In this document: positions 3,001 through 28,200 of the stretch, in pieces
How the letters are laid out: every line of letters starts with the position of its first letter
How positions within the stretch are numbered: position 1 is the first letter of the stretch
NCBI GenBank assembly: GCA_935421135.1
Contig: OW285187.1
Span: forward strand, 16,455,929 to 16,519,928
Length of the DNA stretch: 64,000 nucleotides
Reading direction: 5' to 3'
Origin: Bugulina stolonifera
Taxonomy: Eukaryota > Bryozoa > Gymnolaemata > Cheilostomatida > Bugulidae
The notes under the pieces: model-generated
The model's input: the letters and a program-made list of their open reading frames with translations, nothing else
Database searches by the model: none
Told to the model about the DNA's origin: nothing
Translations under genes and position numbers: made by a program

Positions 3001-5705
3001 TTGCTACAAAACTATACTAAAATAGATGTTATGTAACAAATTTATGTTTTTGTGACATTTACAGCAGAGAAAATGATAAATTATGCATAGTTTTCATACG
3101 TAAACTTGTCCACTATGCAAATATTCTATAGGCTACTACAGCCTGATAACAAATATTACACCTAGGCAAGTGAACTTTCACCACTTAGCTTGCCAAATCT
3201 AAGCATTTAGCTGTTTATATTACCACTATGATAGTGCTCATTAAATAGGCATCAGCCGATGTATGGAGACAGTTTTCATATGATATAATTGTTTTCTAGC
3301 GCCTATTTATTCTTACAAAACTATTTATTTCAAATTCAACTCACAGTTACTGCTCTTTCTTCAATCATAAATACTATCATAGAAAAGACTTCAAAGCATT
3401 ACATCAGATGAGTTGAATATCATTTTTATGTGAACATTTCTAGCAAAATATATTTAGAATTGGTACATGGGAGCAGAAACATAATTTTGATAAAATGATT
3501 ATGAATGTCACAAAACAGAATATAATTTGGGATAATTGAAAGAGCTAGCAGTGTGAAGTGCACAATTGTACTCTTACACTAGCCTAGTTTGTAATTTTCA
3601 TGAAGATGATGCAGGGTGGGCCTATTATACGAAGCACATACCCATTCCCTTTGTCCTTTAGCAACTAGTGGATGATGTTTCTCTGTCTTAACACATAAAA
3701 GACCATTACGGTGCAGACAGCAATCCCATAATACCCTGCAACACCAACAGATCGTTGGACCTTTTTCTACTAATGATGTACCTCTACAATGTCTCACCAC
3801 CCTACTTTGTATATGAATTGAATCTCTAAGGCTACTACTGCTACTACATCACCCTCAATGAGATGGCCTCAATGTCACTGCACTCGCTGTGCCCACTATA
3901 ATGTCGAGAACCTGGGCAACACGTCATTTTGAAAGAGAATCCTCAAACGCATGTACTATTTTGTAGAATTAATATTTCAGTGTCATAATGGAAGGAGTTG
4001 TCTGCTCTTATTCTAGAATGCTTCTGTCCATTCTTAGCATTCTCAATGTGGCAACATGGGAGGCCGTGAGCTTCACTACTCTGATTTAATGACTCGTTGG
4101 CCTGAGCCAGTCCGTCAGCAAGTTGAAATGTTGTGTATATACATCTACATGGTGTATACACACATGGCTTTGTATACATGTATTTACATTTAATTTATAT
4201 ATATAATTACACAGTAGGCTGCACAAGTATAAACAATGCTCTATAATAGTATAACTGAAAATTGTCCCATATACAGGAAATTATCAGTTGCTGCATATAT
4301 TTATTTTGGGGATTTTATACATTCTATATATATTGTATATATAATGATGTATTTTTATCAAGGAATTAATTTTTAAAAATACATCATTATATAAAAAAAT
4401 GGCTAAACCCCCTAACATATTGTATATACAATGTACATCTATATTATACACGTATAATATTTAGTATTTACATTGTATATTCTACTTCACTGCTGCACTT
4501 GCAAGTGCACAGATCCATTTTATTTTTAGTAGGTTTAAGATATAGCTGATATAAATTATATATACGTACAGTGTACATTATAATATGCTTTCTTGTTGTA
4601 CATATACGTCACCGTATATAACTATGTTGACTCTATTCTATATGTATAATGTAGAATAAAATCATTGGTGTGCCTATCTACATGTGTACATTCTAATACA
4701 ATAAAAACAGATAATAATACAATTATATTAAAATATAATTATCAAATTAATTGTAATATTATATTCATAGCAAAATTTGGTAGATCTTCTATTGTGAACT
4801 AGTGTTTGGCCATACTTGTATAATCTTGTACAGTCTATTAATTTTATTGCGCATACTTATTCGTAAGCAGTCAAAGATTTGAATCCAAATTGTAAAAATA
4901 GCCCATCTCTGACTTCCTTGCAATAAAAATAAAGTGTTTCGTTCTTGCATAGCATCTATAACAGCAAAATCATACATTTTTGCATGTCCATATACCTGAA
5001 TAGGTCCAGGATAGTCCCAAGTGTGGGTCCAGTGTGGGTCCAATGTGGGCTCAGCCTAGGTCGAGAGTAGGCCCAATGAAGGTCCAAAGAAGGCATGGAT
5101 AGCTTATGTGTGTTAACAGATGTCAGACACTAATACTATCGATTTTCGATGATGTAACACTGTAGAAAACTAACATTATGGGGCGCACTGATGCTATAAT
5201 ATTCTTGCGGAAAAGTGCCACTCACTGAAGACAAAGATGCAGTTTTAGCCATAATGCTTTCCAACCAGAATGGAATAGTGTTTCAGTAATTTGATATTTA
5301 ATTTAGAGCTATGTTAATAGGCAGGTGTGATAGTCCTATAGCCGTAGTTGACTGCCCTGTAAGAGCATTCACTAATATGTAGTACCTTTAGTCTATGTTT
5401 ATTATGATTTTTTAATTATATTTGGTTTTAGAATGATGTAAAGCAACAAAAATATAATATTAATAAAAACATGAATTTATTTATTCTTTATTGATCCTTT
5501 TCTAAGTTTGCTGTCATAATGAATTCAGAAAACAATAATTTAATCAGTGAAATATCACTTTAGTGTTCACCTGCCACGTGGATTTATGCAAACATCAAGA
5601 GCTGACAGTAAAAATAACCAACCTTATTTCAAAAAACAATCCACCAAGAAGGTAGACTGTTATGAAAAGCTTACTAATTGTTCTGTTTGTTGCACAAATA
5701 CACAT
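1..5705. other. AT-rich noncoding flank
   Basis: No gene can be supported here. All open frames are short (under about 90 codons), do not join into spliced frames and look like random AT-rich sequence. Positions 4990-5100 hold a degenerate tandem motif related to GTGGGTCCA. A hairpin at 4337-4393 is listed separately. A cysteine-rich minus-strand frame at 3590-3800 has no partner exons. Confidence 0.6.
4337..4393. repeat. Short inverted repeat (hairpin)
   Basis: The left arm, centred on AATGATGTATTTTT, is repeated in reverse complement as AAAAATACATCATT after a loop of about 20 nt. It could be the remnant of a tiny fold-back element. No target-site duplication was recognised. Confidence 0.55.
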
Positions 5706-6944
5706 GAGTAGTATAGTCAGTGCACTTCTAGACAGACACGCACTCATTGACCCCTGTTTTCAACCAATCACAAGCCGGTATTTCCGATTTCAACCAATCA
5801 CAGAAGAGCACAAAAATTTTGCACACGACCTTGCCAAGGTCACCCCAAAATCCCCCCTTCTGATTGGTCGAAAAAACATTTGCACACTTGACCCCGAACC
5901 CGGCCACGACCCCTTCCCTTCCTCCTTCCCACCCTCCTCCCCTCCCCCTCCCCCACCTCCCACTCCTCCCTCCTCCCCGCCACCGCCCTCGTCCCGTCCG
6001 CGCCACCGCCGTCGCCGCCGCCGCCACCGCCGCCCTCACCACCGCCGCCGCCGCCGCCACCACCACCGCCCTCACCACCGTCGCCGCCACCGCCGCCGCC
6101 GCCACCACCGCCACCACCACCACCGCCGCCACCACCACCACCGCCACCGCCGCCGCCGCCGCCACCACCACCACCACCGCCGCCGCCGCCGTCGCCGCCA
6201 TCACCGTCATCACCGCCACCCCTCCTCCACCGCCGCCCACCCTCCCCACCCCGCAACCCCCACTCACCCGAACGACCAATCGTTTGAGGCGGTCAAGCCG
6301 CGTCCGCCCACGTTGCGTGCGGCGCCGACCGTACACGTGGAGGCGACGCCGGTGCCCCGTATCCACCGGGCCAAGCGACTAGGCAGCGGCCCGCCGCTTC
6401 TCCCGAGCCCTCCACTCGAAAAGCTTGTGATCTAAACGAGCGAATTCGGCTGCGCTTCTTCGCCTATAACTCTCATTAGCGATAAGAAGAAGTACTACGG
6501 AAGGGATGGTTTATGATGTGCATCGCATTGTTAATAAAGAAATGTGTAAAGTCTTGGCTATAAATACACTGATGGGAAGAAGGGTTGGTTCTATGATATA
6601 CATTGTATTGACAATAAAGAAACGTGTGCATGTGTTAAGTCAGCATATATAATACATTAAATAAACTTTCCGCAATGGTGACAATAGAATGAATAAAAGA
6701 TTGTGTACACGTGTTAAAACACAATTGAAAGAATAAAAGACACATATTTAAAAGAGTATGTCATATCTGTTATTAGCAAGAAAGTCTGTGTACATGTGTT
6801 AAGACAGTGTATATTATACATTAGATAAACTTTTCACAATGGTAGCAATAGAATAAATAAAAGGTTGTGTGCATGTGTTAAGTCAGCATTATGTAATATA
6901 TTAAATAAACTTCACAATAGTAGCAATAGAATAAATAAAAGAGG
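5706..6944 (+). repeat. Left inverted-repeat arm
   Basis: Order from the outer end: CCAAT motifs (about 5763, 5795, 5861 as ATTGG, and 6276), the GC-rich triplet run (about 5890-6260), a unique GC-rich stretch, then AT-rich DNA with repeated units of about 90 bp. Each unit carries GTGTTAAGTCAGCA, TTAAATAAACTTT and GCAATAGAATAAATAAAA. Many AATAAA hexamers on the plus strand point inward. The IkB-like gene ends only 15 bp beyond the arm. Differences from the right arm are few substitutions and small triplet-run changes in the outer 800 bp. Confidence 0.85.
5890..6260. repeat. CCG/CCA triplet GC-rich run in left arm
   Basis: Nearly pure C/G trinucleotide sequence (CCG, CCA, CTC, GTC) inside otherwise AT-rich DNA. 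It has no stops in several frames on both strands, which creates long artefactual Arg/His, Ala/Thr, Pro or Gly open frames. Such DNA resembles a small GC island. It is mirrored at about 14720-15090. Confidence 0.85.
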
Positions 6945-6958
6945 GGTTTAGGTACTTA

Positions 6959-8406
6959 TTACTCATCTTCATCAGAAGTCGTAGGAGCTATAATGTTTAC
7001 GACTTCGGTCTCAGCATACTCTAATTGATATGCTCCAGCTCCAAACTCTTGACACAGTCTTACCTACAAGATGATTTTAGTTTTTTACTCAGACGAATAT
7101 CACTCAAGGTGGACAAAGCAAGAAATCTATACTTCTTTATGTTGTTGGTCCCTTACCATATCTGCTGATTTGTAGAGGTGAGCTAGTTGTTGAGGAGTTT
7201 CACTTTTGTAGTTACGAACTTCAGAATCAGCTCCCAATCTTAGACATGTATGTAGACATTCGTAGTCTTCATTCTCTATGGCAATGTGAGATGGGGCATA
7301 TCCATCTCCCATTCGCTATAATATCAAACAAGAGAATAGAATTAAACTCCCCATCTAACTTATCAATTCGATCTACTCTACTTTTATTCCACTGTAATGT
7401 ATTCACTTACCCTCATATCTAAGTCAGCCCGAGTATTTTTTTTTAGTACTTTTAGTGCCTCTCTATGCTTGCTGCTATGCGCTGTTTCAACAATGAGGTG
7501 GACTACACTCCTTCCATCATGATTGTAGCTCTGTACATTGTCTTGGGGAAGTGATTTGTAAGGAACTCTGAAGTATGGATGCTTTACTTCTGCTCTGGTC
7601 AAACTTGTGGTTAGAGCATGAATAACCTTAGCTCTACCCAGACGTGCAGCAATGTGAAGGGGGGTGTCACCTTCCAAATAAACATTAGCAATATAGATAA
7701 GTATCGAATTGTTACAAGTTTTGCAATACTATATTTTTTAACAAGCAATGCATGCAAACATTGGTGCTATAAAACACTAACCCCAAGCATCGGCTATTGC
7801 TCCATCCGCTCCCCTTGTGATGATGAGACGAATTAGTGAATCCGAACAATAAGACTGTACAGTTAGGTGAAGTAATGTCTGCCGATTCGCATTCTTTGTA
7901 TTCAGTTGTTTGTGACTCCTCGCAACAAATACCGCGAGTGCAATGGCTCTCTCATCTCTATCTCGGGCTGCTTCTAGTACCTCACTACATCATTTAGCAT
8001 GATATTTGTTTTTCACATAGTTGAGAGGTAGTTATATGGGAAATTTGTCTATCATATTTTATTTTGATCATAAAAGACAATACGAAACAAAAAAAAAAAA
8101 AAAATAGTTGGAAGTATGTATAACTTACAACTCTTCATCCTTTCCATCTTGCTCCCAAAAGATAGAACGAATTTCTTCTAGTAACTGTGTGCTAAGCTTA
8201 TTACGAATATCGGTTAAAGGATCCCATTTCTGCCAATCTAGAGGTAAGCTTTTTTGGAGAAAGAGCTCAGACACCCCCTCAAATAAGTCTTTATTCTCAT
8301 ACTTGCTTTGTTCTGTACATCTTTCCACTGTTACCTTCATCAGCTCTTGGTTTATAGGAGTCATTAGCTTGTTGCTATACTCGCTTGATCCATATCCACT
8401 TTCCAT
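6959..8406 (-). CDS. IkB-like ankyrin-repeat inhibitor of NF-kB
   Basis: Five exons join in phase: 8129-8406, 7782-7984, 7411-7670, 7157-7315 and 6959-7063, giving 334 aa, the usual size of an IkB. IkB proteins bind NF-kB dimers through ankyrin repeats and hold them in the cytoplasm until phosphorylated and degraded. Seen here: an N-terminal MESGYGSSEYS resembling the DSGxxS phosphodegron with Glu for Asp; ankyrin signatures NRQTLLHLTVQ, GDTPLHIAARLGR, GRSVVHLIVE and DGYAPSHIAIE spaced as in IkB; and an acidic Ser/Thr tail ending TTSDEDE. The last four exons each hold about one or two repeats. The gene lies inside the inverted-repeat module and is divergent from the gene at 9731. A CCAAT/TATA pair sits about 90-120 bp upstream. 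Family assignment is strong at the ankyrin level; IkB rather than another ankyrin protein rests on length, degron and layout. Confidence 0.8.
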
Positions 8407-8489
8407 GCTATTTGTGTGCTAACCTTCTTTAATTTCTATTAAGAACAGACTGGAGCTAGAAAGAGTTAACTAAACTACTGTTTCCACCT

Positions 8490-8530
8490 CTCTTTATATA
8501 GTGAATAAAAAGATACAAATAAAGCTGATT
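8490..8530 (-). promoter_or_regulatory. CCAAT plus TATA promoter of IkB-like gene
   Basis: On the minus strand a GCCAATC motif (about 8524-8530) precedes CACTATATAAAGAG (about 8490-8505), roughly 90 nt before the start codon at 8406. The order and spacing suit an RNA polymerase II core promoter. The transcription start itself is not visible. Confidence 0.5.
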
Positions 8531-8559
8531 GGCTAACAGCATATACATTGGAGTGCATT

Positions 8560-9560
8560 GGAAACACATCAGAGTGCATCGAATCACATCGGGAAAGATC
8601 GAAAACACATAGGGAAACATCGAAACACATCGGGAAAGGTCGAAAACACATCGGGAGAGGTCGAAAACACATCGGGACACATCGAATCACATCGGGGGAG
8701 GTCGAAAACACATCGGGACACATCGAATCACATCGGGGGAGGTCGAAAACACATCGGGACACATCGAATCACATCGGGGGAGGTCGAAAACACATCGAAT
8801 CACATCGGGGGAGGTCGAAAACACATCGGAGGAGGTCGAAAACACATCGAATCACATCGGGGGAGGCCGAAAACACATCGAATCACATCGGGGGAGGTCG
8901 AAAACACATCGAATCACATCGGGGGAGGTCGAAAACACATCGAATCACATCGGGGGAGGTCGAAAACACATCGAATCACATCGGGGGAGGTCGAAAACAC
9001 ATCGGGGGAGGTCGAAAACACATCGGGACACATCGAATCACATCGGGGGAGGTCGAAAACACATTGAATCACATCGGGGGAGGTCGAAAACACATCGAAT
9101 CACATCGGGGGAGGTCGAAAACACATCGAATCACATCGGGGGAGGTCGAAAACACATCGGGACACATCGAATCACATCGGGGGAGGTCAAAAACACATCG
9201 GGTTACATCGGGGAAGGTCAAAAACACATCGAGACACATCGAATCACATCGGGGGAGGTCGAAAACACATCGGGGGAGGTAAAAAACACATCGGGTTACA
9301 TCGGGTTACATCGGGTTACATCGGGTCACATCGGGGAAGGTCGAAAACACATCGGGACACATCGAATCACATCGGGGGAGGTCGAAAACACATCGAGACA
9401 CATCGAATCACATCGGGGGAGGTCGAAAACACATCGGGGGAGGTCGAAAACACATCGGGTTACATCGGGTTACATCGGGTTACATCGGGTTACATCGGGT
9501 TACATCGGGTTACATCGGGTTACATCGGGTTACATCGGGTTACATCGAATCACATCGGGA
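8560..9560. repeat. ACATCGRR tandem array between divergent genes
   Basis: About 1 kb of higher-order repeats. All units start with ACATCG: ACATCGGGGGAGGTCGAAAAC, ACATCGAATC, ACATCGGGAC and ACATCGGGTT. The 10-bp form TTACATCGGG occurs about nine times head to tail at 9450-9545, i.e. near one helical turn per unit. The array separates the promoters of the IkB-like gene and the plus-strand gene. It reads open in two plus frames only because stop codons are absent from the unit. Confidence 0.9.
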
Positions 9561-9587
9561 TGCAATAAATCAGACTAAAAAAAGGCA

Positions 9588-9625
9588 AATCACTTCTGAT
9601 TGGACAGAGATTTCCATAAAAGCAA
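9588..9625 (+). promoter_or_regulatory. CCAAT-like plus TATA-like promoter of module gene B
   Basis: TCTGATTGGACAG (an inverted CCAAT box) is followed about 20 bp later by CCATAAAAGC, a TATA-like element. The start codon is at 9731. This mirrors the promoter on the other side of the array, so the central kilobase looks like a bidirectional control region. Confidence 0.4.
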
Positions 9626-9730
9626 GCGTGAGAGAGGATTTTTATCATTACCACTCAACCACCTAGTAAAGACTTGCAACTCTGTGGATATTTACTAATT
9701 CCTCTGAATAAACATCACTCAACAATTAAT

Positions 9731-12700
9731 ATGGTGAGTAAACTTATTTTAATATGTATTTTAGTATGAATTTACTCATTTGAGTTAACATTGGGACTAA
9801 TTCTATTTTAGTAGTGATATAATACTCCCTTGGTATGACTAGAGCTTAGAAACTTTGTAAGCTTATGTATTAAACTGTTTTGATTCTCAACATGAGAGCA
9901 AGTATGTAGAGATCTGATCTGTCTATACTACAATTTGTGTGACCGGAGCTTAGAAGCTTTATATGTGGTGAGATTTTTTTCAATATGAGTAGTTATACCA
10001 CTAGTAGTGTAATAAGTATCAAAACAGTTTATTACCACTTGTACTGGCTATACTAGTACATCCTAGCTATTTTAATATGTATTTTAATATGAACTTACTC
10101 ATTTGAGTTAACATTGGGGCTAATTATATTTTAGTAGTGGTATAATTCTCCTTTGGTATGTCCAGGGCTTAGAAACTTTGTAAGCTTATATATTAAACTG
10201 TTTTGATTCTCAACATGAAAGCATGTGTGTAGAGATCTGCTCTGTCTATACTACAATTAGTGTGACCATAGCTTAGAAACTTTATAAGTGGTGAGATTTA
10301 TTTTCAATATGAGTAGTTATACCACTAGTAGGGTAATAAGTATCAAAACAGTTTATTACCACTTGTACTGACTATACTTGTACATCCTAGCAAAGAAGTA
10401 TATTATCAAGTGTAGCCTATACTCTACATCCAAGACTATACTGTACTAAAGTGGCCTATCACAATACTTGGGGTGGACTTGCTGCTAAAAAGATTAACTG
10501 GATAATTCTAATGAATAGGTCTGCACTAAAGTGATTTATTACACTACTTGGGATGAACTTGTTGCTAAAAAGATTAACTGAATAATTCTAATAAATAGGT
10601 CTACACCAAAGTGATTTATTACACTACTTAGGATGAACTTGAAGCTAAAAAGACTAACTGATTAATTCTAATAAATAGATCTGCACTAACACAAGAGTAA
10701 TTTATCTCTCTGTTTGGGAGGAGCTTACCATCAGAAAGACTCAATTGGTTGAAAAACACATAAAAAGTAAGGGGTGGTATTTTTGGTTTTTTTTCTGTCT
10801 TATACTGATTATTCACTTCAAAATTAATTCTTGCTAACACATGTTCTGTTTATCTGTTCTTGTTTCTATTCCCCAGTGACTATGGTGAGTTGGTGGTTTT
10901 ATCCACACAGTTAAGGCTTTAGTATATATTATTACTTGTTATTTAACTTGCCTATGCTATTCATTCTAAAAGTAGTTGTTATCAGTATTCTTATTCTCTT
11001 GCTCAATAACTATAGGGATTAGTATTTTTGTATACTTGACTTGTACACTACCACTATGCTCATGTTTCCTATATATTTTTATTCATTCTTATTTTCTTTG
11101 TTTAGTAACTATGTTGCATTAGTAGTTCCGTTTACTTGACTTATGCTTTGGTATATGTTTATTACTCTACATATACTTACAGGCTTCTACATCTAAATAT
11201 CAAAGAAAGAAATATATAAGAAAAATTAAAACATCAAAAAAAGGTACGAAGTATATGATTACGTACGACTCGGAAGACAGAAGACGAATCTCGAGGAAAA
11301 GAATCCCATCTCCAGAAATGGTTAGTCTATTATCTTATTTGTTCACACATGCATTACACCTTCAATCCACTATGGTGTTGGGTTTCTAAGATGTCAAAGG
11401 AGATTACTGACATTTCTGCAGAAGTACATGTTAGTTACACATAATGATGATGTACTTTTTTATACTATAAGCCTCTTACCATGTCTAGAATGTCAAAAGA
11501 GACTACTTCCTTTTTAAAACCAGATGTTAATTAGTCATAGTATGATTTTCTCTAATTCTATAAGTCTCTTACCATGTCTAAGATGTTAAAGATTAGTGAT
11601 ATTTTTATTATAAGTATTGCACTTTCTTTCTTATGTATTATTTTTATCAATAAGACACTTTTTTTTTTTCTTTTCTTATGTGAAAAAATATAACATAAAT
11701 TACAACTGGTTTTCTTATGTTGATGATGTATTTCTCTTTATGTGAGTAAATAGACAGGCTTTAGTAGACTTGCTTAGTACTTAGAGTGCCAGTTTTTTCA
11801 TCAAATTCTTCAAAAACCATATATTACAAATAGCTATGTTAATGTAGTTTGTTAATTAGTCACTGCACATTTTATTTACATTATAGAATGAAAAAGAAAC
11901 AGAACTAGGGGAAGAAGAGATTGCTTTATTTGAACAATGTGGGGGAGTAGATGGCTTCGAGATAGGTAAGAATGATTTAGTATCTATTTGTAGATTTAGA
12001 ATCTTTTTTTTTTCTGATTTACAAGTAAGTCATATGTTCTCTCTCACTTATTCTTGTTATTTTCTTTCTTTTTTAGGACTCAGAGCAAAGTCGATATGTA
12101 AGGGGGGTCTAAGATTCTATGTCTTTGTTAGTGATGAGACAAAAAGAAGACTGGAGATGTCACTAACAAAGCCATTTGAATCGGATGACCCCTGTTTTTT
12201 ATGCAATAAGAATGTTGGGCACCGACGAGGTGTCCACATTCAACAGCATTTTTTGCTCCGAATCTGTTTTTGCTATCACATAACAGTAGATGATGAGGGG
12301 ATGAATAGACACTACAACTTTCCATCTAATCATCATATTGATGGAAAGCCCTGTCACCGACACATCTCATTCAACACACGCTTTCTAACAGATATCTATT
12401 CACTAAAAAAGACCATATCCTTTTTGCAAAGGGTCACTGGTCACTCTCCACCTTCCAAAATACTCATCCCCGCATACACTCCAACAACTGTTGGTGGGGT
12501 AGTATACCCTCCCTTCTTTAAGGGGATGTCTACTACTCCATTCTCTTTAAAGTCTGGGGTGTGCTCTTCACAATTTCCTCTCCCTTCTCACCGTCATTTT
12601 GATTCAGATGCTTCTTCCATCAGTAACTCTCTTACTAATGGAGACATTTCCATCTCTACTTCTTCTCTTACAACTACTACTATTACTACTACTCCTTCTA

Positions 12701-13437
12701 CTACTTCTTTTCCTCCACTCTTTTCTTCACATTCACCCTCTCATTCTCCTGAAAGATCTGTAAAGTCTGGGGTGTGCTCTTCACAATTTCCTCTCCCTTC
12801 TCACCATCATTTTGATTCAGATGCTTCTTCCATCAGTAACTCTCTTACTAATGGAGACATTACCACCTCTACTTCTTCTCTTACAACTACTACTATTACT
12901 ACTACCATTACTACCACTCCTTCTACTGCTTCTTTTCCCCCACTCTTTTCTTCACATTCACCCTCTCATTCTCCTGAAAGATTTGATGATACAGTTACCA
13001 CTGTTTCGATACCTACTTCTACTCCCACCTCTTCACCTGCTCCACTCTTTTTCTTAGATTCACCCTCTTTTTCTCTTGGAAGGTCTAATAATACAATTAC
13101 TAGTCTTTCAATACCTACTTTTATTACTACTTCTACTACTACCACTTCTTCCTTTTCTTTAGCTTCACCCTCTCTTTCTTTTGGAAGAGAGCTACTTAGC
13201 TCGCAATCTCCTTCTTGTTCGTCTGAACTCAATCTTAATACCCCCACCACTATTACCCCCATAGAAGAGGAGACTGTCAGTGAACTAGTTGATCGAAGCA
13301 GACTCCCCCCATCTTTTTTCTCTGGAGCAGTTGAGTATTACCGCTCTGCCATTTTTCATCTCAAGAAGAATGGGTATCACAGAGAGGTAATAGCACAAGC
13401 TGAAGCTTACCTTCGAGTCAGTGAAGAAAAGCTCTAA
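9731..13437 (+). CDS. Unrecognised Cys/His and Ser/Thr-rich protein (module gene B)
   Basis: Four exons join in phase: 9731-9733 (the ATG alone, then GTGAGT), 11183-11320, 11887-11965 and 12077-13437, giving 526 aa. Residues 1-47 are very basic (KYQRKKYIRKIKTSKKG), like a nuclear signal. Residues 48-73 are acidic. Residues 74 to about 215 form a compact region with CFLCNKNVGH and scattered Cys and His that could bind metal. Then comes a long Ser/Thr/Pro region made of two near-identical blocks starting KSGVCSSQFPLPSH, plus degenerate SPSxSxxR copies. The last about 60 residues (from IEEETVSELV) look helical. I recognise no family: it is not a clear transposase, Rel or IRF domain. It shares a bidirectional control region with the IkB-like gene. 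An internal ATG at 10882, also followed by GTGAGT, could serve as an alternative first exon. Exon structure is confident; function unknown. Confidence 0.72.
9742..10395. repeat. Tandem duplication of about 327 bp in intron 1
   Basis: Two head-to-tail copies (about 9742-10068 and 10069-10395). Both contain ACTCATTTGAGTTAACATTG, TCTCAACATGA and ATCAAAACAGTTTATTACCA, and differ by scattered substitutions. Both lie in the first intron of module gene B. Confidence 0.85.
10440..10700. repeat. About 85-bp tandem repeat, three copies
   Basis: Repeated core GCTAAAAAGATTAACTG followed by ATAATTCTAATAAATAGGTC. It lies in intron 1 of module gene B just before the possible alternative first exon near 10875. 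Confidence 0.75.
12547..12984 (+). repeat. Coding tandem duplication in module gene B
   Basis: Two copies of about 215 bp begin AAGTCTGGGGTGTGCTCTTC (12551 and 12764) and end near CATTCTCCTGAAAGA. The second copy has extra ACTACT-type codons. Weaker related copies continue to about 13190. This explains the length of the Ser/Thr-rich segment. Confidence 0.85.
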
Positions 13438-13559
13438 TCATCTTTTCTTTTTTCTCCCACTCTCTTTCTCCCACTCTCTCTCTCTGTAGTGTCTCATTCC
13501 CTCTGCATTTACTTTTATGTGATATCAAATCAGTGAGGATTTTTTTAAATTATTTTTTA

Positions 13560-15271
13560 AATTATTATATAATGGTATTCTAACACTTATACACATCCTT
13601 TTATACATTCTATTGCTACTTTTGTAAAAAGTTTGTTTAATGTATTATATGTGCTGACTTAACACATGCACACAGCTGTCTCTTGCTATAATAGCTATGA
13701 CATACTCCTTTACATATGTGTCTTTTATTCTTTCAATTGTGTTTAAATCATATTATAATGATATTTCAACATGTGTACACAATCTCTATTTATTCTATTG
13801 CTACTATTGTGAAAAGTTTATTTAATGTATTATATATGCTGCCCTTAACACATGTACACAGACTTTTCTTGCTAACAATAGCTATGACATACTCCTTTAC
13901 ATATGTAGCTTTTTTTATTCATTCTATTGCTAGTGTTGTAAAAAGTGTATTTAATGTATTACATAATGCTGACTTAACACATACACTCAATCTTTTATTT
14001 ATTCTATTGCTACTATTGTAAAAAGTTTATTTAATATATTACATAATGCTGACTTAACACATGCACACAACCTTTTATTTATTCTATTGCTACTATTGTG
14101 AAAATTTTATCTAATGTATAATATACACTGTCTTAACACATGCACACAGACTTCCTTGCTAATAACAGATATGACATACTCTTTTAAATATGTGTCTTTT
14201 ATTCTTTCAATTGTGTTTTAACACGTGTACACAATCTTTTATTCATTCTATTGTCACCATTGTGAAAAGTTTATTTAATGCATTATATATATATATGCTG
14301 ACTTAACACATGCACACGGTTCTTTGTTGTCAATACAATGTATATTATAGAAACAACCCTTCTTCCCATCAGTATATTTATAGCCGAGACTTTACACATT
14401 TCTTTATTAACAATGCAATGCACATCATAAACCAAGCCTTCCGTAGTACTTCTTCTTATCGCTGAAACCAAGCCTTCCGTAGTACTTCTTCTTATCGCTA
14501 ATGAGAGTTATAGGCGAAGAAGCGCAGCCGAATTCGCTCGTTTAGATCACAAGCTTTTCGAGTGGAGGGCTCGGGAGAAGCGGCGGGCCGCTGCCTAGTC
14601 GCTTGGCCCGGTGGATACGGGGCACCGACGTCGCCTCCACGTGTACGGTCGGCGCCGCACGCAACGTGGGCGGACGCGGCTTGACCGCCTCAAACGATTG
14701 GTCGTTCGGGTGAGTGGGGGTTGCGGGGTGGGGAGGGTGGGCGGCGGTGGAGGAGGGGTGGCGGTGATGACGGTGATGGCGGCGGCGGCGGCGGCGGCGG
14801 TGGTGGTGGTGGTGGCGGCGGCGACGGCGGTGGCGGTGGTGGTGGTGGCGGCGGTGGTGGTGGTGGCGGTGGTGGCGGCGGCGGCGGTGGCGGCGACGGT
14901 GGTGAGGGCGGTGGTGGTGGCGGCGGCGGCGGCGGTGGTGAGGGCGGCGGTGGCGGCGGCGGCGACGGCGGTGGCGCGGACGGGACGAGGGCGGTGGCGG
15001 GGAGGAGGGAGGAGTGGGAGGTGGGGGAGGGGGAGGGGAGGAGGGTGGGAAGGAGGAAGGGAAGGGGTCGTGGCCGGGTTCGGGGTCAAGTGTGCAAATG
15101 TTTTTTCGACCAATCAGAAGGGGGGATTTTGGGGTGACCTTGGCAAGGTCGTGTGCAAAATTTTTGTGCTCTTCTGTGATTGGTTGAAATCGGAAATACC
15201 GGCTTGTGATTGGTTGAAAACAGGGGTCAATGAGTGCGTGTCTGTCTAGAAGTGCACTGACTATACTACTC
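13560..15271 (-). repeat. Right inverted-repeat arm
   Basis: This is the reverse complement of the left arm. 14000-15271 is collinear with 6944-5706, and 13560-14000 holds additional copies of the same about 90-bp unit, making this arm longer. A local duplication of about 36 bp (CCTTCCGTAGTACTTCTTCT twice) lies at about 14425-14500 and is absent from the left arm. AATAAA hexamers on the minus strand again point inward. Module gene B ends at 13437, about 120 bp before the arm. Confidence 0.85.
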
Positions 15272-18047
15272 ACATGTGGCTTCCATATATAAGCAATAAT
15301 GGTTTACCAAGTACACTGTAATAGTTTACATAAGCCTGTCTGCTGTTGATCTAACCAATTACGACAATTAAGCAATGGCTAAGAAGGGTGACAATGTTAT
15401 CATTGAGACAGCTAGCTAACCATTGGATACACCACTTGTTTTCTGGTTGTCTTGGAGGTCTGATGCAGCTCGGCTGGCGGTTTGGCAACGTTACTCGTCT
15501 GTGCGGGAGGCAAATAAAAAATTTTCTCACAGTTTCAAAGCCAGATTTTTAAATTACACTAATTTAGATCTATTGAAATTTTAATAATACAAATTATTAA
15601 CGAAAACAAGTTATTCATAAAATAATGCGATTTTATTGTAATATTGATGTTAAATAGGTGGAATGATGCTTTGTCTGAAGGTCTATTATGCTGGCTTATA
15701 TTAACATAAAGAATTAGTTTGTACATTAATGATTAATTTTCTATAGGAGCTCTAATGTGACTGATGCATGTAAGCTAATGTTGACGTTTTTGAATAAATA
15801 ACAAGAATAATAGTGAACAAAAAACTCACCCCTTAATCTAAACACGGTCAACTCTATCCTTTGGAATGGTGCATTCCTCACCTACCAATCCAACATACTG
15901 AGTCACAAAAGACAGTACTAATTTATCAGGTGGTAATTAAAGGTGTTTTGTTTTGCTTCATTTATTAATACAAGCAGTGAATTAAGCAAAAAAACTTGAC
16001 ACTGATAGAATTGAAAGGACCATAATTTGAATGAATTCAGCTTTGTTAACTTTTAATACATTTCAGTACAGTTAGCAAAACATGAGGTGATATAAATATG
16101 TGCATGTGCATGTATATAAATAGCAATTATAGATCCCAGTTCAAGATGAGATAATATTCTGAGGTGTGATGAGCCACTTCACGCTGCGATGTATCTCTTT
16201 ATACGATGAACAGAACAATGAATTCTTACGACTTTATTCATCAAACAAGCATCCAGATTCGATGACACATAAATTTCTCTCCATTCATTCACTTACTAAA
16301 ATGAGACATAAATTGAACTTTTTTATTTGTGAACACATTTTTGAACTCCTATGTGGGGGGGGGGTGTGTTGTATAGCAATCACATAGTAATGACCTTACC
16401 ACAATGAAACCAAAGTGTCTAAAACCATTTTATTTAAAATGGTTTTGAACACTGATTTTATTGTGATATTTTAGCTCTAAACTGCTTTATCAAGCACTTT
16501 TGCCATTGATGTAATCTTATATTATGACCTTACATATATTTAGTAGGTTCTAATATAAATATATAGGCCTACTTAGGTGCAATATTATTTGGGCATATCA
16601 TCAATGTATTGTGTAACAAGTGTGCATTGTGTGTATTTATAAACAAACTATATTATCAATAATATTAAGTACAATCAAAACATGTAATATAATATTATTC
16701 TGAACAGGTAACAAAGAGAAGAAATTGGCCAAAGATATTTATTTGTTTCATTTGATATAATTTGGTCTTTGTGTTGGCAGAGATCTCTATTTTACTATCA
16801 CAGCATTATATAACCAATTTATTGAAAACAAATACCTTCATATACATACAGATAATAACAGAAGTGTGTTCACCCACACTGCTGTCTATAATTAAGCTCA
16901 AAACTGATAATTAAGTAAGTATATCACTAATCAAACACATATCTGGGATAATTTGAGTAGAATATTTGTTACAGGAGCATGTGCTTGCACTGTAATAAGT
17001 TATGTATCTGGTAAGAGAACACTACTTGCCCTCTGCTGCCATCCAGCAGCTCAATTAGTAGCACCTGCCTTCCTTGTCACATTTCTTATTAAATATATGC
17101 AATACAAGTAGTTCACTGGGTATAGAGTTACTGAATTTATAATATTAATTGAATTCATTCGCTTGAACATCATTGCAAATATTGTAACATTTATTATAAT
17201 TTTAACTAAAGAGGTTAAAATGTCAAAATAGAAGAAGTTCGGTGAATAATAAAAACAGGTGAGTGAAAGGTATGTTATATTATGTATTACATGTAGTAGA
17301 CGATTAGTCATACAGGTGCATAAATACACTCTGGATTTGAGTAGCTGTATAAGGTGGTATTTTGTGTTGTTGTATAATATTGATGACAGTTTACAGCTTC
17401 AAATAAAATGTAACACACATGTACATACACTGTCCATGTACATACACTGTTTATGTACATGCACATGCACTGTTTATGTACATATACATACACTGTTTAT
17501 GTACATATACATACACTGCAGAGGTACACTTGACAGATTATTATTGGCACTTTTTTTATTCATGTGTATTTACTATTTCCATTCTTCAAGAATAAAGAAC
17601 ATGCATACCTCTCGAGGCTTCAACATCAGGATGATTGGCTACTAAATATGTACACATTTTCAACCTGTAGTATGTGTAAATATAAATTCCATGTTCAACA
17701 CAGCCACTGCAATGAGTATTGCCCATCAAAACATTCTTCAAGATTCCAGGTTTATAGATGCAATATTATTCAATAGTGACTATAGTGACATAGATAATTA
17801 TAATATGCTGACTTTGTGGCTGATTTGTATTAGATTTGTTCTAGCAGTTATAATGGGGACTATTGGGTATTATGAACATGATATTGTATGCAGCTTATTA
17901 AGATTTTGATACTAACATTGAATAATAAATTGTGCTTGAAGGTTCAACGTCATGAGTAATCCAATTCTGGTAGTCATTCTCTCTTGCAATACAATTACAC
18001 AGTTTGTATTAGGATTTGTCTTCCCAATTCAACCACAATTACATTTA
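15272..18047. other. Noncoding intergenic region
   Basis: AT-rich, with no supportable gene. A small cluster of TGTACATACACTG-type repeats lies at about 17410-17520, and a G-run at about 16355. Open frames are short and isolated. Confidence 0.6.
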
Positions 18048-22200: not shown

Positions 22201-25200
22201 TTGTGATGCGTTGTACATCTTACGAGATGCCTGTTGTACATTGTTAGCATACTCCCTGTCCATATGGTGATGCGAGTGGTGATGATGGTGGTGGTGATGG
22301 GTTTGGTGTCTAGCCTGTGTTCTATATGAGGGTTGTGGGGCTTCCTGAGGCACCCTAGCTGCTGGTATAGGGGGAGGTGTATCTTCAGAGTGCCTGGGTT
22401 CTACAGATGGTGCTCTATATTGCCTACTGCGGTAAGTGTCTGTACTGTAACTATAACTAGCCTGAGGTACATACGGATTGTAACTGGGAGGTGGGGCGGC
22501 CACAGATGAGCCCCCATGTTCTGCTCTGTTTACTGCCCGTCTCTGTTTCAGAGCTTTCCTCTCCAGACTACCATAGGGGTTATTAGCTAAGTAATTCTTA
22601 GACCTGTGTCCACTAGAGCTACCCAGAGTCCTGTCCGAGTACTGACCGTGAGGAGAGTGACTGTGCCCACTACCGTTGCCTATCAAAATCACAACATACT
22701 GTCAGCACCTTATACGCCTACCACTGAACAACAAACTGAGACAATAGTATATACTCATGAAATAACAACATACCCTGAGCCAACAGAACATGTTATGAAC
22801 CAAGTGCTATGGTAAATGTAGACACTAACCAATGCTGTTATTAGCTGCCATTCTAACATCATCCATACTGCCGGAGCGGAGGGGTCTACCGTTAGATACA
22901 CTGTAGGCGTGGAGAGATGATGTGCTAGAGTTAGCTGTGCTCGAACCAACAGAGTTGAGGTCCGCCGCCGAGTGTACCACTGGAATGTTACTGCTACCAG
23001 AGATGGGAGTAGACATCGGTGGACGGTTGTATTTGAGAGCTTTGGTCGGGGTGAACTCATGGTGTCTGTATGGTATAAATAAAGACGATGTTACCACAAT
23101 GTCTGCCTGTCTGTTAATATACTAGAACCTTAGCAGTATATAATCTAATAGAGGATATAAGTACATGTATGCTATATAGAAGATATAAGTACATGTATGC
23201 TATATAGAAGAGGAATTCATCCAACACCTGAAGCAAACATTAGTGAAACATTGGAGACCCTCTACTGTACATTATTAATCGTGAAGTACTGTATAAGAGA
23301 CTACAGCAGAGGGGCAGTGAAACCAGCAGTGTGTCTGGAGAGAGCAGCAGAAGATACTATTATATAAACTCACCCTTCTAACATGGAGAGAGAAGCGAGT
23401 GAAGAGGATGAGCTAGGGTTACTCACTACGTCAAACGATCGTGCACTGCCCGACTTGTTTGAGCTTTGCAACCTTGACCCAGAGTTCATTCGTCGTCTTG
23501 AACTCGGAGAATATTCTAGTGACTCCAACTGTAGACAATTATAATGATTAGCACATATTCTAGAGACATGCTTGTGTCATTATATACCTGCTGTATGCAC
23601 CTGCTGCTACGTGTATAATACAGTAATAGTATAAGTACTAACCTGTTGTGATGAGACTGATTTCTTAGGAGACCTGGTAATGCCTGGGGAAGGCCCTATG
23701 GAGCCTAGTGATGCAGTATCTACAACCAAAGTAAGTATAGACTATAGACTATAGAGTATAGAGTATGTACATGTAGATGTAGATGTGCTTATTATACATC
23801 TACATGTATACATGCACAGAACTGGTAATACAGCCCAAAATTTGGAAACAATTGCAGTTATATGACAGTTTATAGAGAGTTGATATTTTTTGATACTATG
23901 GTCATTTAAGGATATACAGTATAATTATAACAAGTGCGTAAATTTGATTGAACTTTCCAACACCAGCAAAATCATGTGATTATAGGAGTTGTCTACTCTA
24001 TCATAGTAAGAATCAACGAAGTAAGATAACTCCCAGTGCAGTACTAGTGTGTGGGTGGGTGTGTGTACTGTAATAGTAATTACTAGTTAGTAGTGACTAC
24101 ACAATATCTACACACACACATATACGTAGAATAGAGTGGAATAGTATAGTATAACAAGACATAGAGAAGAGTAAAAGAGTCAGAATTTAACAGTTACGAC
24201 ACGTACTATACATTAGATAGTTATAGTGGTGACACAATATGTGAAGGCTGAAGTGGGTAAGGTGCAAGACATGAATGGTACAAAGTGTTCCAACAATGTA
24301 CATGTGATGTATGTATGGTACAGTGTGTATATACAACAACGTGACGTTTACAGAGAGAAAGAGACATATGTAGACTAGAAGTACAAAGATAGTCACATTC
24401 TATTACCATCACTGCGGGGCCCTGTACTACCGCCCTCACTCACTACGTCTATAAGCATATAGAGTAGTGGTGGGTGAAATATCTTTATAGTGAAGATGCA
24501 TGTATATTACATTGTACATATTATTTGTATATCTAACACCAGGTGTGTATTCTATATTTCCAACAGTTCCCAGCATGCATCAAAACGGCATTATCAGAAT
24601 CAAAACGTCGCCAATTTAGAAAACTTCAATACCCTGAAATTTTTTTATGATCATTACATTTAGTGATTAATACGAATAGAAAACAGTGCCTTTATCTATA
24701 GTGTATGTAAGTACTAAATATCCAAATATTACGTATGATATTGTGGACTAATGCAAAGCAATGCATTGCTGCATAGCTGGCAAGGCAGTTCTTGTATTTC
24801 AGTTCAGGTAGATGTCACTGTATTGTAGAGTATATTATATTCTAATGTTTACTTTGAAGTGGGTGCATATACATGTAAATATTAATGTTATGATAACACG
24901 GGAGGAAAGGCAGGGAATATACATACCATCGCTAGTCAGACTTCCTGTATCGAACCCAGCTTGGTGTCTCCTAGCACGGAGCCTCTGTTCCAGTTCCTTT
25001 AGCTATCAAATATCACAATAATGTATTACTGTGCATTAGAATTAAAAAAATACATAGTAGCATAATTCACAAATATCAAAAGTACATGTATTCCTAGCAG
25101 ATGTGGGTAGCTCATATACATGTATATACTAGTATGTAATATATACATGTAATATATACTAGTAGGCCTATGTAATATATACATGTATATACTAGTATGT

Positions 25201-28200
25201 AATATATACATGCTAGTATGTACTCCTGTATATATTATATATACATGTATTATACTAGTATGTAATATATACATGTATATACTAGTATGTAATATATACA
25301 TGCTAGTATGTACTCCTGTATATATTATATATACATGTATTATACTAGTATGTAATATATACATGTATATACTAGTATGTAATATATACATGCTAGTATG
25401 TACTCCTGTATATAATATATACATGTATATACTAGTATGTAATATATACATGCTAGTATGCACTACTGTATATAATATATACATGTATATACTAGTATGT
25501 AATATATACATGCTAGTATGCACTACTGTATATAATATATACATGTATATACTAGTATGTAATATATACATGCTAGTATGCACTACTGTATATTATATAT
25601 ACATGTATTATACTAGTATGTAATATATACATGCTAGTATGCACTACTGTATATAATATATACATGTACTTTATATAGCTGAATAAAAAGTGAAGCAGTG
25701 CCAATATTCACTACTTTCAATATTCATTACTTTTACTGCCAATATCACGATAAAAAGGGAACTTAATTTCCATAATAAAACCTCTACATGTACATGTATG
25801 TAATATTATGTACATGTAGTTGGTGGGGATGGGAAGTAATAGCAGTCAATGTGATTAATTTATAATTAATTTGTGAAAATTTTCATGTCATGCAGCAGAC
25901 AACGTATCTACAACCTTGGTAGGTACAACCTTTGTATGTACAACCTTGGTATGTACAACCTTGGTATCTACAACCTTGGTAGGTACAACCTTTGTATGTA
26001 CAACCTTAGTGTGTACAACCTATGTATGTACAACCTATGTATGTACAACCTATGTATGTACAACCTTGGTAGGTACAACCTTGGTATGTACAACCTTGGT
26101 AGGTACAACCTATGTATGTACAACCTATGTATGTACAACCTATGTATGTACAACCTTGGTATGTACAACCTTGGTAGGTACAACCTTGGTATGTACAACC
26201 TTGGTAGGTACAACCTTGGTATGTACAACCTTGGTAGGTACAACCTATGTATGTACAACCTTGGTATGTACAACCTTGGTAGGTACAACCTTGGTATGTA
26301 CAACCTTGGTAGGTACAACCTATGTATGTACAACCTTGGTAGGTATAACCTTGGTATCTACAACCTTTGTATGTACAACCTTGGTATGTACAACCTTGGT
26401 ATGTACAACCTTGGTAGGTACAACCTTGGTAGGTACAACCTTGGTATGTACAACCTTGGTATGTACAACCTTGGTATGTACAACCTTGGTATGTACAACC
26501 TTGGTAGGTACAACCTTGGTAGGTACAACCTTTGTATGTACAACCTTTGTATGTACAACCTTTGTATGTATAACCTTGGATGTACAACCTTTGTATGTAC
26601 AACCTTTGTATGTACAACCTTTGTATGTACAACCTTGGTATGCACAACCTATGTATGTACAACCTATGTATGTACAACCTATGTATGTACAACCTTGGTA
26701 GGTACAACCTTGGTATGTACAACCTTGGTAGGTACAACCTTGGTAGGTACAACCTTTGTATGTACAACCTTTGTATGTACAACCTTTGTATGTATAACCT
26801 TGGATGTACAACCTTTGTATGTACAACCTTTGTATGTACAACCTTTGTATGTACAACCTTGGTATGTACAACCTATGTATGTACAACCTATGTATGTACA
26901 ACCTATGTATGTACAACCTTTGTATGTACAACCTATGTATGTACAACCTTTGTATGTACAACCTTTGTATGTACAACCTTGGTAGGTACAAGCTAGATGT
27001 TCAAGAATTATATAAGTGTATGACGATCAACAATAGCATAGACTACACAGTACAATTATACTATTATACTACTAGGGATACCTTACTATACATTTTTATA
27101 CCAATCAGTTAGAAGTCTACCTACCATAGTACGACCTACCTTGTATGACCTACCATAGTATGACCTACCATAGTACGACCTACCATAGTACAACCTACCA
27201 TAGTACGACCTACCTTGTATGACCTACCTTGTACGACCTACCATAGTATGACCTACCATAGTACCACCTACCATAGTACCACCTACCATAGTACCACCTA
27301 CCATAGTATGACCTACCTTAGTACGACCTATCATAGTATGACCTACCATAGCATGACCTACCTTAGTACGAGCCTCTGTGTAATCTGCATTATGCTTCTT
27401 CCGTACATTCTTCGATAAGGTCTCATCATTGGCAAGTTTTTGTTTAGCTTTGAGAATTTGTTTCTGTACCTCATACTCCATCTCTAACTTGGTGAGATCC
27501 GAGTCCTTCCCACTCACTAAATCTATAGAATACACACGCACATATTAGTACAGAATAGAAGACAAGCTACACTATTACCTACTTTTAAAAAGTTATGCTG
27601 GATGTAAGGGAGAGTAACTCCCAACAAAAAGCAGTAGGCCTATAATTGTAATGCTATTTAGACTGTACCTTCTAATTATAGTACACTAAACAGTACTGTG
27701 TATCTGCTATAGAGAATGTTAGACTGAGTACCTGCTACAGATAATGTTAGACTGAGTACCTGCTATAGAGAATGTTAGACTGTGTACCTGCTATAGAGAA
27801 GGCCGTGCCCACTCTTTTCTTCACAGTAGGAGTTTTCTCCCCAGGTGACATGAAGAGGGTGTACTCATGGGGTAACTCCCCAGTCACCTCACTCTCCTGT
27901 AGGCATAGGGCCTTCAGCTGCTTGATCTTGTCCTGTAGGACTCCCTCCAGCTTGTTCTTACGTTCATCTAGTCCTTTATACAGTTCTATCTGCTTGACCC
28001 TTTCCTCTGGTGTTACTACAGTAGTAAGGAATCGTATTATTATATAATACTTATGTCCCCGTATTACCGTAAAATTAAATTTAATATATCCTTGTATTAC
28101 AGGTTTAAATGAATATAATACATCAGCATATTACATTACTATAAAAGTACTAATATAGCGCGGTGAGGTCAATTATACTTGTAATACATAAATTACAATA

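What the first reader, a model, noticed from the sequence alone, without database searches (positions are those of the whole stretch)
5706..15271. Two-gene module enclosed by long near-identical inverted repeats, with no recognisable transposase
Arms of more than 1.2 kb, sharp outer ends (GAGTAG/CTACTC), a possible ACAT duplication and a compact two-gene interior look like an undescribed large mobile element or a captured cargo cassette. One cargo gene is an immune-signalling inhibitor, which is unusual for a DNA transposon. Near identity of the arms implies either recent insertion or continuing gene conversion.
Basis: partly seen in the sequence, partly recalled or inferred. Interest (0 to 1): 0.88.

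Follow-up and report, generated by a model that had tools for sequence, protein, structure and literature searches.

The report
Virus-like transposon cargo carrying Cactus gene
In a sea-moss (bryozoan) genome, a mobile DNA block that carries a copied immune-signalling brake gene sits in many places and shares its ends with a virus-like transposon that carries capsid and integrase genes, so the two probably move together.

Summary
The arms are real. The element is 5707-15270 with a 6-bp target duplication (CACATG), not 4 bp; the outer G/C belong to the target. It ends AGTAGT...ACTACT, the Maverick/Polinton signature; 13 of 13 elements checked have perfect 6-bp duplications. The terminus occurs 356 times on each strand. 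Two interior classes did not co-occur at 85 exact termini: V (197 capsid-marker places) with integrase+chromodomain, A32-type ATPase and double-jelly-roll capsid but no PolB seen; C (125-153 marker places), like the window, with a predicted five-exon IkB/Cactus gene (71% to Bugula neritina Cactus) and an orphan gene. V and C share TIR haplotypes (one identical pair), target preference and a minisatellite octamer. Gene 1 shows excess synonymous change (6 to 2, small sample), though 2 of 5 copies read carry a 1-base gap. Separate ~15-kb PolB Mavericks share only 9-10 terminal bases. Best reading: a non-autonomous Maverick mobilised in trans by V, with PolB possibly from the PolB Mavericks, carrying a captured NF-kB inhibitor. 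Mobilisation, packaging and function are inferred. Boldest reading: a divided integrating animal DNA virus.

The parts
5701..5706 (.). left target-site duplication CACATG
   Evidence: identical to 15271-15276; same 6-bp parse perfect in 13 of 13 elements
5707..6942 (+). left terminal inverted repeat, starts AGTAGT
   Evidence: outer ~690 bp shared with capsid-coding V elements
6962..8406 (-). gene 1 (predicted), IkB/Cactus-like ankyrin protein, 334 aa, exons 8406-8129, 7984-7782, 7670-7411, 7315-7157, 7063-6962
   Evidence: splice assembly; ankyrin Pfam; BLASTP 71% to Cactus of Bugula neritina over 87% (65% in the MAFFT alignment); 6 synonymous, 2 non-synonymous changes against L042
8543..9559 (.). 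ACATCGGG-based minisatellite between the two divergent genes
   Evidence: 46 ACATCGGG in the element, 0 in the rest of the window; same octamer in V loci
9731..13437 (+). gene 2 (predicted), orphan protein of 526 aa, exons 9731-9733 (ATG), 11183-11320, 11887-11965, 12077-13437; Cys/His-rich core and Ser/Thr/Pro-rich tail
   Evidence: splice assembly; no relatives found; dN/dS about 0.31-0.33 between subfamilies
13991..15270 (-). right terminal inverted repeat, ends ACTACT
15271..15276 (.). right target-site duplication CACATG

Best explanation
The window element is a non-autonomous Maverick/Polinton that carries a captured host Cactus/IkB gene plus an orphan gene. No mobility or capsid gene was found in it. 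It is mobilised in trans by V elements that share the outer TIR and encode integrase, packaging ATPase and capsid. V shows no protein-primed PolB, so replication is probably supplied by the few PolB-bearing Mavericks of the genome (or by the host), which share the terminal AGTAGTATA. The IkB protein probably damps NF-kB signalling while elements are active and so favours spread of both classes. Shown: family features, ends, duplications, two classes, TIR sharing, gene content, a signal of selection. Inferred: trans-mobilisation, packaging, PolB source, IkB action.
For: 6-bp duplication in 13 of 13 elements, AGTAGT//ACTACT ends, matching Maverick features in passages of PMC8097293. V interior: Pox_A32 E 1.4e-6, rve 2e-11, Chromo 1.2e-6; the model of P0001 (448-aa database protein, 100% identical to the L044 capsid frame over 97%; pLDDT 82.7) matches PBCV-1, Sputnik, mavirus and Faustovirus double-jelly-roll capsid proteins. 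Marker places at up to 3 mismatches: termini 356+356, MCP 197, gene 1 153, gene 2 125. Of 85 exact termini on C1-C7, 42 led to MCP, 35 to gene 1 and/or 2, 0 to both classes, 8 to neither. A tree of the shared 633-690 bp mixes V and C (9 label changes, shuffled mean 11.6); L021 (V) and L016 (C) are identical. Same target preference: NNYRNG in 10 of 12 V and 13 of 14 C junctions against 24% background. Gene 1 relatives; selection. PolB Mavericks with AGTAGTATA ends.
Against: No transposition, packaging or expression was observed. The PolB Mavericks show no TIR similarity to V or C beyond the 9-10 end bases, which may be just the ancestral end motif, and their two duplications (ATAGCT, TAATAT) do not fit the V/C target motif. 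The gene-1 selection test rests on 8 differences to L042, a copy that itself has a 1-base gap in gene 1 and a broken gene 2 frame; L040 also has a 1-base gap in gene 1, so 3 of 5 copies read in full have gene 1 without gaps. TIR labels are still somewhat clustered (42 of 500 shuffles as low). The 8 termini with neither marker show that other derivatives exist.
Confidence: 0.78

Rival explanations
1. A divided virus: V and C are two genome segments of one integrating DNA virus (with a PolB element as a third part), co-replicated and co-packaged, with the IkB segment needed for infection rather than a parasite of V.
For: Marker numbers of the same order (197 MCP, 125-153 for the C genes), shared TIR haplotypes, shared octamer arrays, no terminus leading to both gene sets among 85, excess synonymous change in both C genes as in V integrase and MCP.
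Against: No evidence that V depends on C; no particles; neither segment shows a polymerase.
Confidence: 0.25
2. A plain passenger: a derivative with working ends that happened to catch host DNA; the genes ride along without a role.
For: Repeat-only and rearranged derivatives exist (L053, L072). 2 of 5 fully read C copies have a 1-base gap in gene 1, and L042 has a broken gene 2 frame.
Against: Excess of synonymous change: gene 1 P 0.0026 on 8 differences; gene 2 P 0.013 (W/L042) and 5.6e-6 (W/L055); gene 2 exon 4 is open to its end in the window, L039, L040, L041 and the diverged L055.
Confidence: 0.15
3. An independent cut-and-paste transposon family (Ginger- or Sola-like, 4-bp duplication) with an unknown transposase.
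For: First reading of a 4-bp duplication.
Against: 6-bp duplications, AGTAGT ends rather than TGTNR, TIRs shared with a capsid-coding element.
Confidence: 0.02

Closest known systems
Maverick/Polinton (vertebrate elements, PMC8097293, passages read)
   Same: 6-bp duplications, (AGT)2//(ACT)2 ends, long TIRs; V has integrase, MCP and, by place or weak match, minor capsid and protease in the published module order, plus ATPase
   Different: no such gene was found in the window element; V shows no PolB and is 10.7-11.4 kb in five pairs of exact termini (published intact elements 12.7-24.6 kb); V and C are separate elements with common outer TIRs
Nematode Mavericks with captured cargo (wosp, krma; passage in meeting report PMC10680173)
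   Same: host genes carried by Mavericks
   Different: the passage speaks of cargo of Mavericks; here the cargo sits in its own element without viral genes and is an NF-kB inhibitor
Transpovirons (PMC7031253, abstract start in a listing only)
   Same: small elements associated with another element's particles
   Different: here integrated in an animal genome, sharing TIRs with the partner and carrying a host immune gene; packaging not shown
Polydnavirus vankyrins (recalled, no call)
   Same: IkB-like ankyrin proteins on virus-derived DNA lacking virion genes
   Different: vankyrin DNA is delivered into another host; here the copies multiply within one genome

Membership tests
Maverick/Polinton | 6-bp target-site duplication | tested here: met
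   13 of 13 elements: 5 of V size, 7 cargo by marker or interior, 1 unclassed
Maverick/Polinton | (AGT)2//(ACT)2 ends and long TIRs | tested here: met
   window AGTAGT...ACTACT, about 1.24-kb TIRs; features in PMC8097293 passages
Maverick/Polinton | rve integrase in the element | tested here: not met
   no similarity in the window element; present in V with the same outer TIR
Maverick/Polinton | double-jelly-roll major capsid gene | tested here: not met
   no similarity in the window element; present in V
Maverick/Polinton | protein-primed PolB | tested here: not met
   no similarity in the window element, nor in the 10-kb stretches of L043 and L044 (one PolB of this genome as query); found in separate ~15-kb elements
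IkB/Cactus | ankyrin domain closest to IkB proteins | tested here: met
   top hits Cactus of Bugula neritina 71%, Watersipora NF-kB inhibitor alpha-like 59%
IkB/Cactus | N-terminal phospho-degron DSGxxS | tested here: inconclusive
   starts MESGYGS, aligned by MAFFT with MDSGLGS and MESGYES of relatives; E replaces D; the degron motif is recalled
IkB/Cactus | binds Rel proteins and keeps them inactive | not testable with these tools
   no assay
Ginger | TGTNR ends and 4-bp duplication | tested here: not met
   ends AGTAGT, 6-bp duplication (definition in PMC2836005 passages)

The most novel reading that the evidence does not exclude
A divided, integrating animal DNA virus of Maverick type: capsid and integrase genes on one element, an NF-kB inhibitor and an orphan gene on a second with the same outer TIRs, and PolB on a third that shares only the terminal origin bases, all propagating together in one genome.
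Probability: 0.27. Interest if true: 0.9.

Novelty: new variant of a known kind. Interest (0 to 1): 0.76.

Why it matters
Mavericks are described as self-contained virus-like transposons. Here their functions seem split over elements that share ends, and one part carries a captured immune brake with a signal of selection. That makes it testable whether Maverick particles can package other elements and whether a transposon gains by lowering host NF-kB signalling, a parallel to polydnavirus vankyrins (recalled). Copies up to 99.9% identical at different loci suggest recent or current activity in an accessible marine animal.

Tried and rejected
Ginger/Sola-type transposon with 4-bp duplication: rejected by the 6-bp parse. 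Target motif CNNNNG: rejected as an artefact, since my search pattern began with the flanking G and pairs of exact termini fix both outer bases; only the inner positions are used. PolB inside the TIR family: none of the 11 PolB matches lies near the listed exact termini (first 100 of 712 places), and PolB pieces show no TIR similarity (one search had cut its list before these loci, so I repeated it). First TIR tree included bases inside the shared part and split V from C; it was replaced by one cut at the last shared motif, which also leaves out L024 and L029, whose class was open. Gene 2: no relatives, no Pfam family (sub-threshold HupH_C E 0.11), single-sequence model useless (pLDDT 32.7). 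Viral contigs: no relatives of gene 2 or MCP. PDB sequence search with gene 1: the 60 rows shown are ankyrins and mostly designed repeat proteins. MCP: no match by sequence in PDB, only by fold. Protease: weak only (Peptidase_C5 E 0.1 below its cut-off; ASFV S273R E 0.086); minor capsid by place only (no Pfam match). Host Cactus gene of this genome: not found, because the search did not complete. Literature: no paper with the phrases non-autonomous/nonautonomous Polinton or Maverick, defective Polinton or Polinton satellite; no Maverick/Polinton paper with IkB cargo seen in the listings; open-licence library only.
Full report
What is there. The window carries an inverted-repeat element whose arms are real and nearly identical. 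The same arm occurs all over the genome: all 40 scored hits were 99-100% identical over 1.2 kb (938 first-look candidates, the rest unscored), and the 44-bp terminus was found 356 times on each strand at up to 3 mismatches. The genome has 234.95 Mb in 27 contigs; the 7 contig lengths that my calls showed (C1, C2, C3, C4, C6, C8, C10) equal those of the bryozoan Bugulina stolonifera, assembly tzBugStol2 (Table 2 of PMC10213821, passages read; the paper gives 30 scaffolds).

Ends. Read with the element as AGTAGT...ACTACT (5707-15270), the duplication is six bases, CACATG, and 13 of 13 elements with both junctions read have a perfect 6-bp duplication: the window, L039-L042 and eight further pairs. 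Features reported for vertebrate Mavericks are 6-bp duplications and (AGT)2//(ACT)2 ends (PMC8097293, passages); the repeated end motif is said there to allow the jumping-back step of protein-primed replication.

Two interiors. L039-L041 repeat the window's interior at 99% or more and L042 is a 95-97% subfamily, but L043 and L044 share only the outer 0.7-1.1 kb. Their interior codes for a packaging ATPase (Pox_A32, 1.4e-6) and an integrase (rve 2e-11) with chromodomain, and for a 461-aa frame whose database twin P0001 (448 aa, 100% identical over 97%) gave a model (pLDDT 82.7, alignment of 22 of the 40 hits and twin) that matches double-jelly-roll capsid proteins of PBCV-1, Sputnik, mavirus and Faustovirus; by sequence it matches nothing in PDB. 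A likely protease (weak: Peptidase_C5 E 0.1, ASFV S273R E 0.086) and a likely minor capsid protein (by place only) follow the order integrase, minor capsid, small ORF, MCP, protease that is reported for vertebrate Mavericks. A PolB of this genome finds nothing in the 10-kb stretches of L043 and L044; 9.8 of 10.75 kb of L044 was read, and the rest is TIR and about 0.2 kb next to it as judged from other termini. I call this class V and the window's class C.

Numbers. At up to 3 mismatches the 44-mers gave 197 MCP, 153 gene 1 and 125 gene 2 places. Each marker tests one short stretch, so diverged copies are missed and duplicates within one element count twice. Of 85 exact termini on C1-C7 (termini, not elements; both ends of some are counted; marker lists limited to the places shown, exact for MCP and gene 1), 42 led to an MCP place, 35 to gene 1 and/or gene 2 (30 both, 3 gene 2 only, 2 gene 1 only), 8 to neither and none to both classes. 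One of 94 MCP places lay within 9 kb of a cargo gene. Of the 8, one (L053) has a repeat-only interior and one (L055) is a diverged cargo.

V and C belong together. Over the shared 633-690 bp, 34 termini (18 C, 16 V; 28 of 30 loci plus six ends of L041-L044; L024 and L029 left out; several rows are two ends of one element; L028 is V by 0.9 kb of match only) give a tree in which the labels change 9 times (shuffled mean 11.6; 42 of 500 shuffles as low), and one V and one C terminus are identical. Both prefer the same targets: inner motif YR in 10 of 12 V and 13 of 14 C junctions against 24% in the window, AYRT in 6 of 12 and 9 of 14 against 3.75% (V rows with one flank were merged; two C elements give two rows each; the last base G was fixed by my pattern). 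The octamer ACATCGGG forms arrays in the C copies read in full and in V loci L043, L044 and L054 and is absent from the rest of the window; the 5-kb piece L055 of a diverged cargo has none. I take this to mean that one integrase serves both and that their ends recombine, hence that they meet in one cell.

Cargo. Gene 1 is predicted with five exons and 334 residues. Its best relatives are Cactus of Bugula neritina (71% over 87%) and an NF-kB inhibitor alpha-like protein of Watersipora (59%), so it was probably captured from a bryozoan, with introns (inferred; host intron places were not compared). It begins MESGYGS, aligned with MDSGLGS and MESGYES of relatives, possibly a kept phospho-degron. 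Gene 2 is an orphan. Against L042, gene 1 has 6 synonymous and 2 non-synonymous changes (dN/dS about 0.10, P 0.0026) and gene 2 10 and 10 (0.33, P 0.013); against L055 gene 2 has 32.5 and 32.5 (0.31, P 5.6e-6). V genes, L044 against L043: integrase about 0.05, MCP 0.085, ATPase 0.095, minor capsid 0.08; protease 0.29 is not significant (P 0.22), a coiled-coil ORF has 2 and 12 (above 1, P 0.83), and a 152-codon stretch of the 451-aa ORF has 0 and 4. Against the reading: of 5 C copies read in full (window, L039-L042), gene 1 has no gap in 3; L040 and L042 each have a 1-base gap at different places, and L042 has a broken gene 2. Gene 2's last exon is open to its end in the window, L039, L040, L041 and L055.

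Polymerase. PF03175 gives 11 matches. Two of these places, read in pieces, are about 15-kb Mavericks with PolB; one was annotated and has an A32 ATPase and its own integrase (27% to that of V); the two are 99% alike over 7 kb, with ends AGTAGTATAAAAG and AGTAGTATAGACTC and duplications ATAGCT and TAATAT. They share nine to ten terminal bases with the window element (AGTAGTATAGTCAG) and show no further DNA similarity to its TIR, to the whole window element or to L044. A PolB that starts at the shared end bases could copy V and C, but this is inference.

Mechanism. Shown: ends, duplications, classes, sharing, a signal of selection. Inferred: PolB in trans copies linear V and C; V integrase inserts both; V capsids may package both; the gene 1 product binds Rel proteins and lowers the antiviral response. 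Nothing was seen to move. The divided-virus reading needs V to depend on C, for which I have no evidence.

Known or not. Cargo capture by Mavericks is known (nematode wosp and krma, passage in PMC10680173). In ten searches of the open library (listings, plus passages of five papers) I did not find a capsid-less Maverick class with its own immune cargo and a PolB-less capsid partner. This is a new variant of a known kind.

Noticed in passing
L017, L018, L019 (C1 14.20, 14.30, 14.36 Mb): Three V termini share the same left flank: probably one insertion in a segmentally repeated host stretch.
   Followed up: partly
L072 (C3:9522000-9530500): A 6.5-kb derivative with TIRs and gene-1 sequence at both ends in inverted order; no gene 2 match among the hits shown. 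Convergent gene-1 marker pairs 3-12 kb apart also occur on C3, C6 and C8.
   Followed up: partly
L053 (C1:17538967-17544000): An element interior that matches only minisatellite and subterminal repeats of V and C.
   Followed up: partly
C2:16.251-16.266 Mb and C1:4.28-4.29 Mb (L073-L078): Recent ~15-kb PolB Mavericks, 99% alike over 7 kb, a separate family in the same genome.
   Followed up: partly
window 25026-26991: Long low-complexity frames on both strands (tandem repeats, MYNLG/TTLVC type), outside the element.
   Followed up: no
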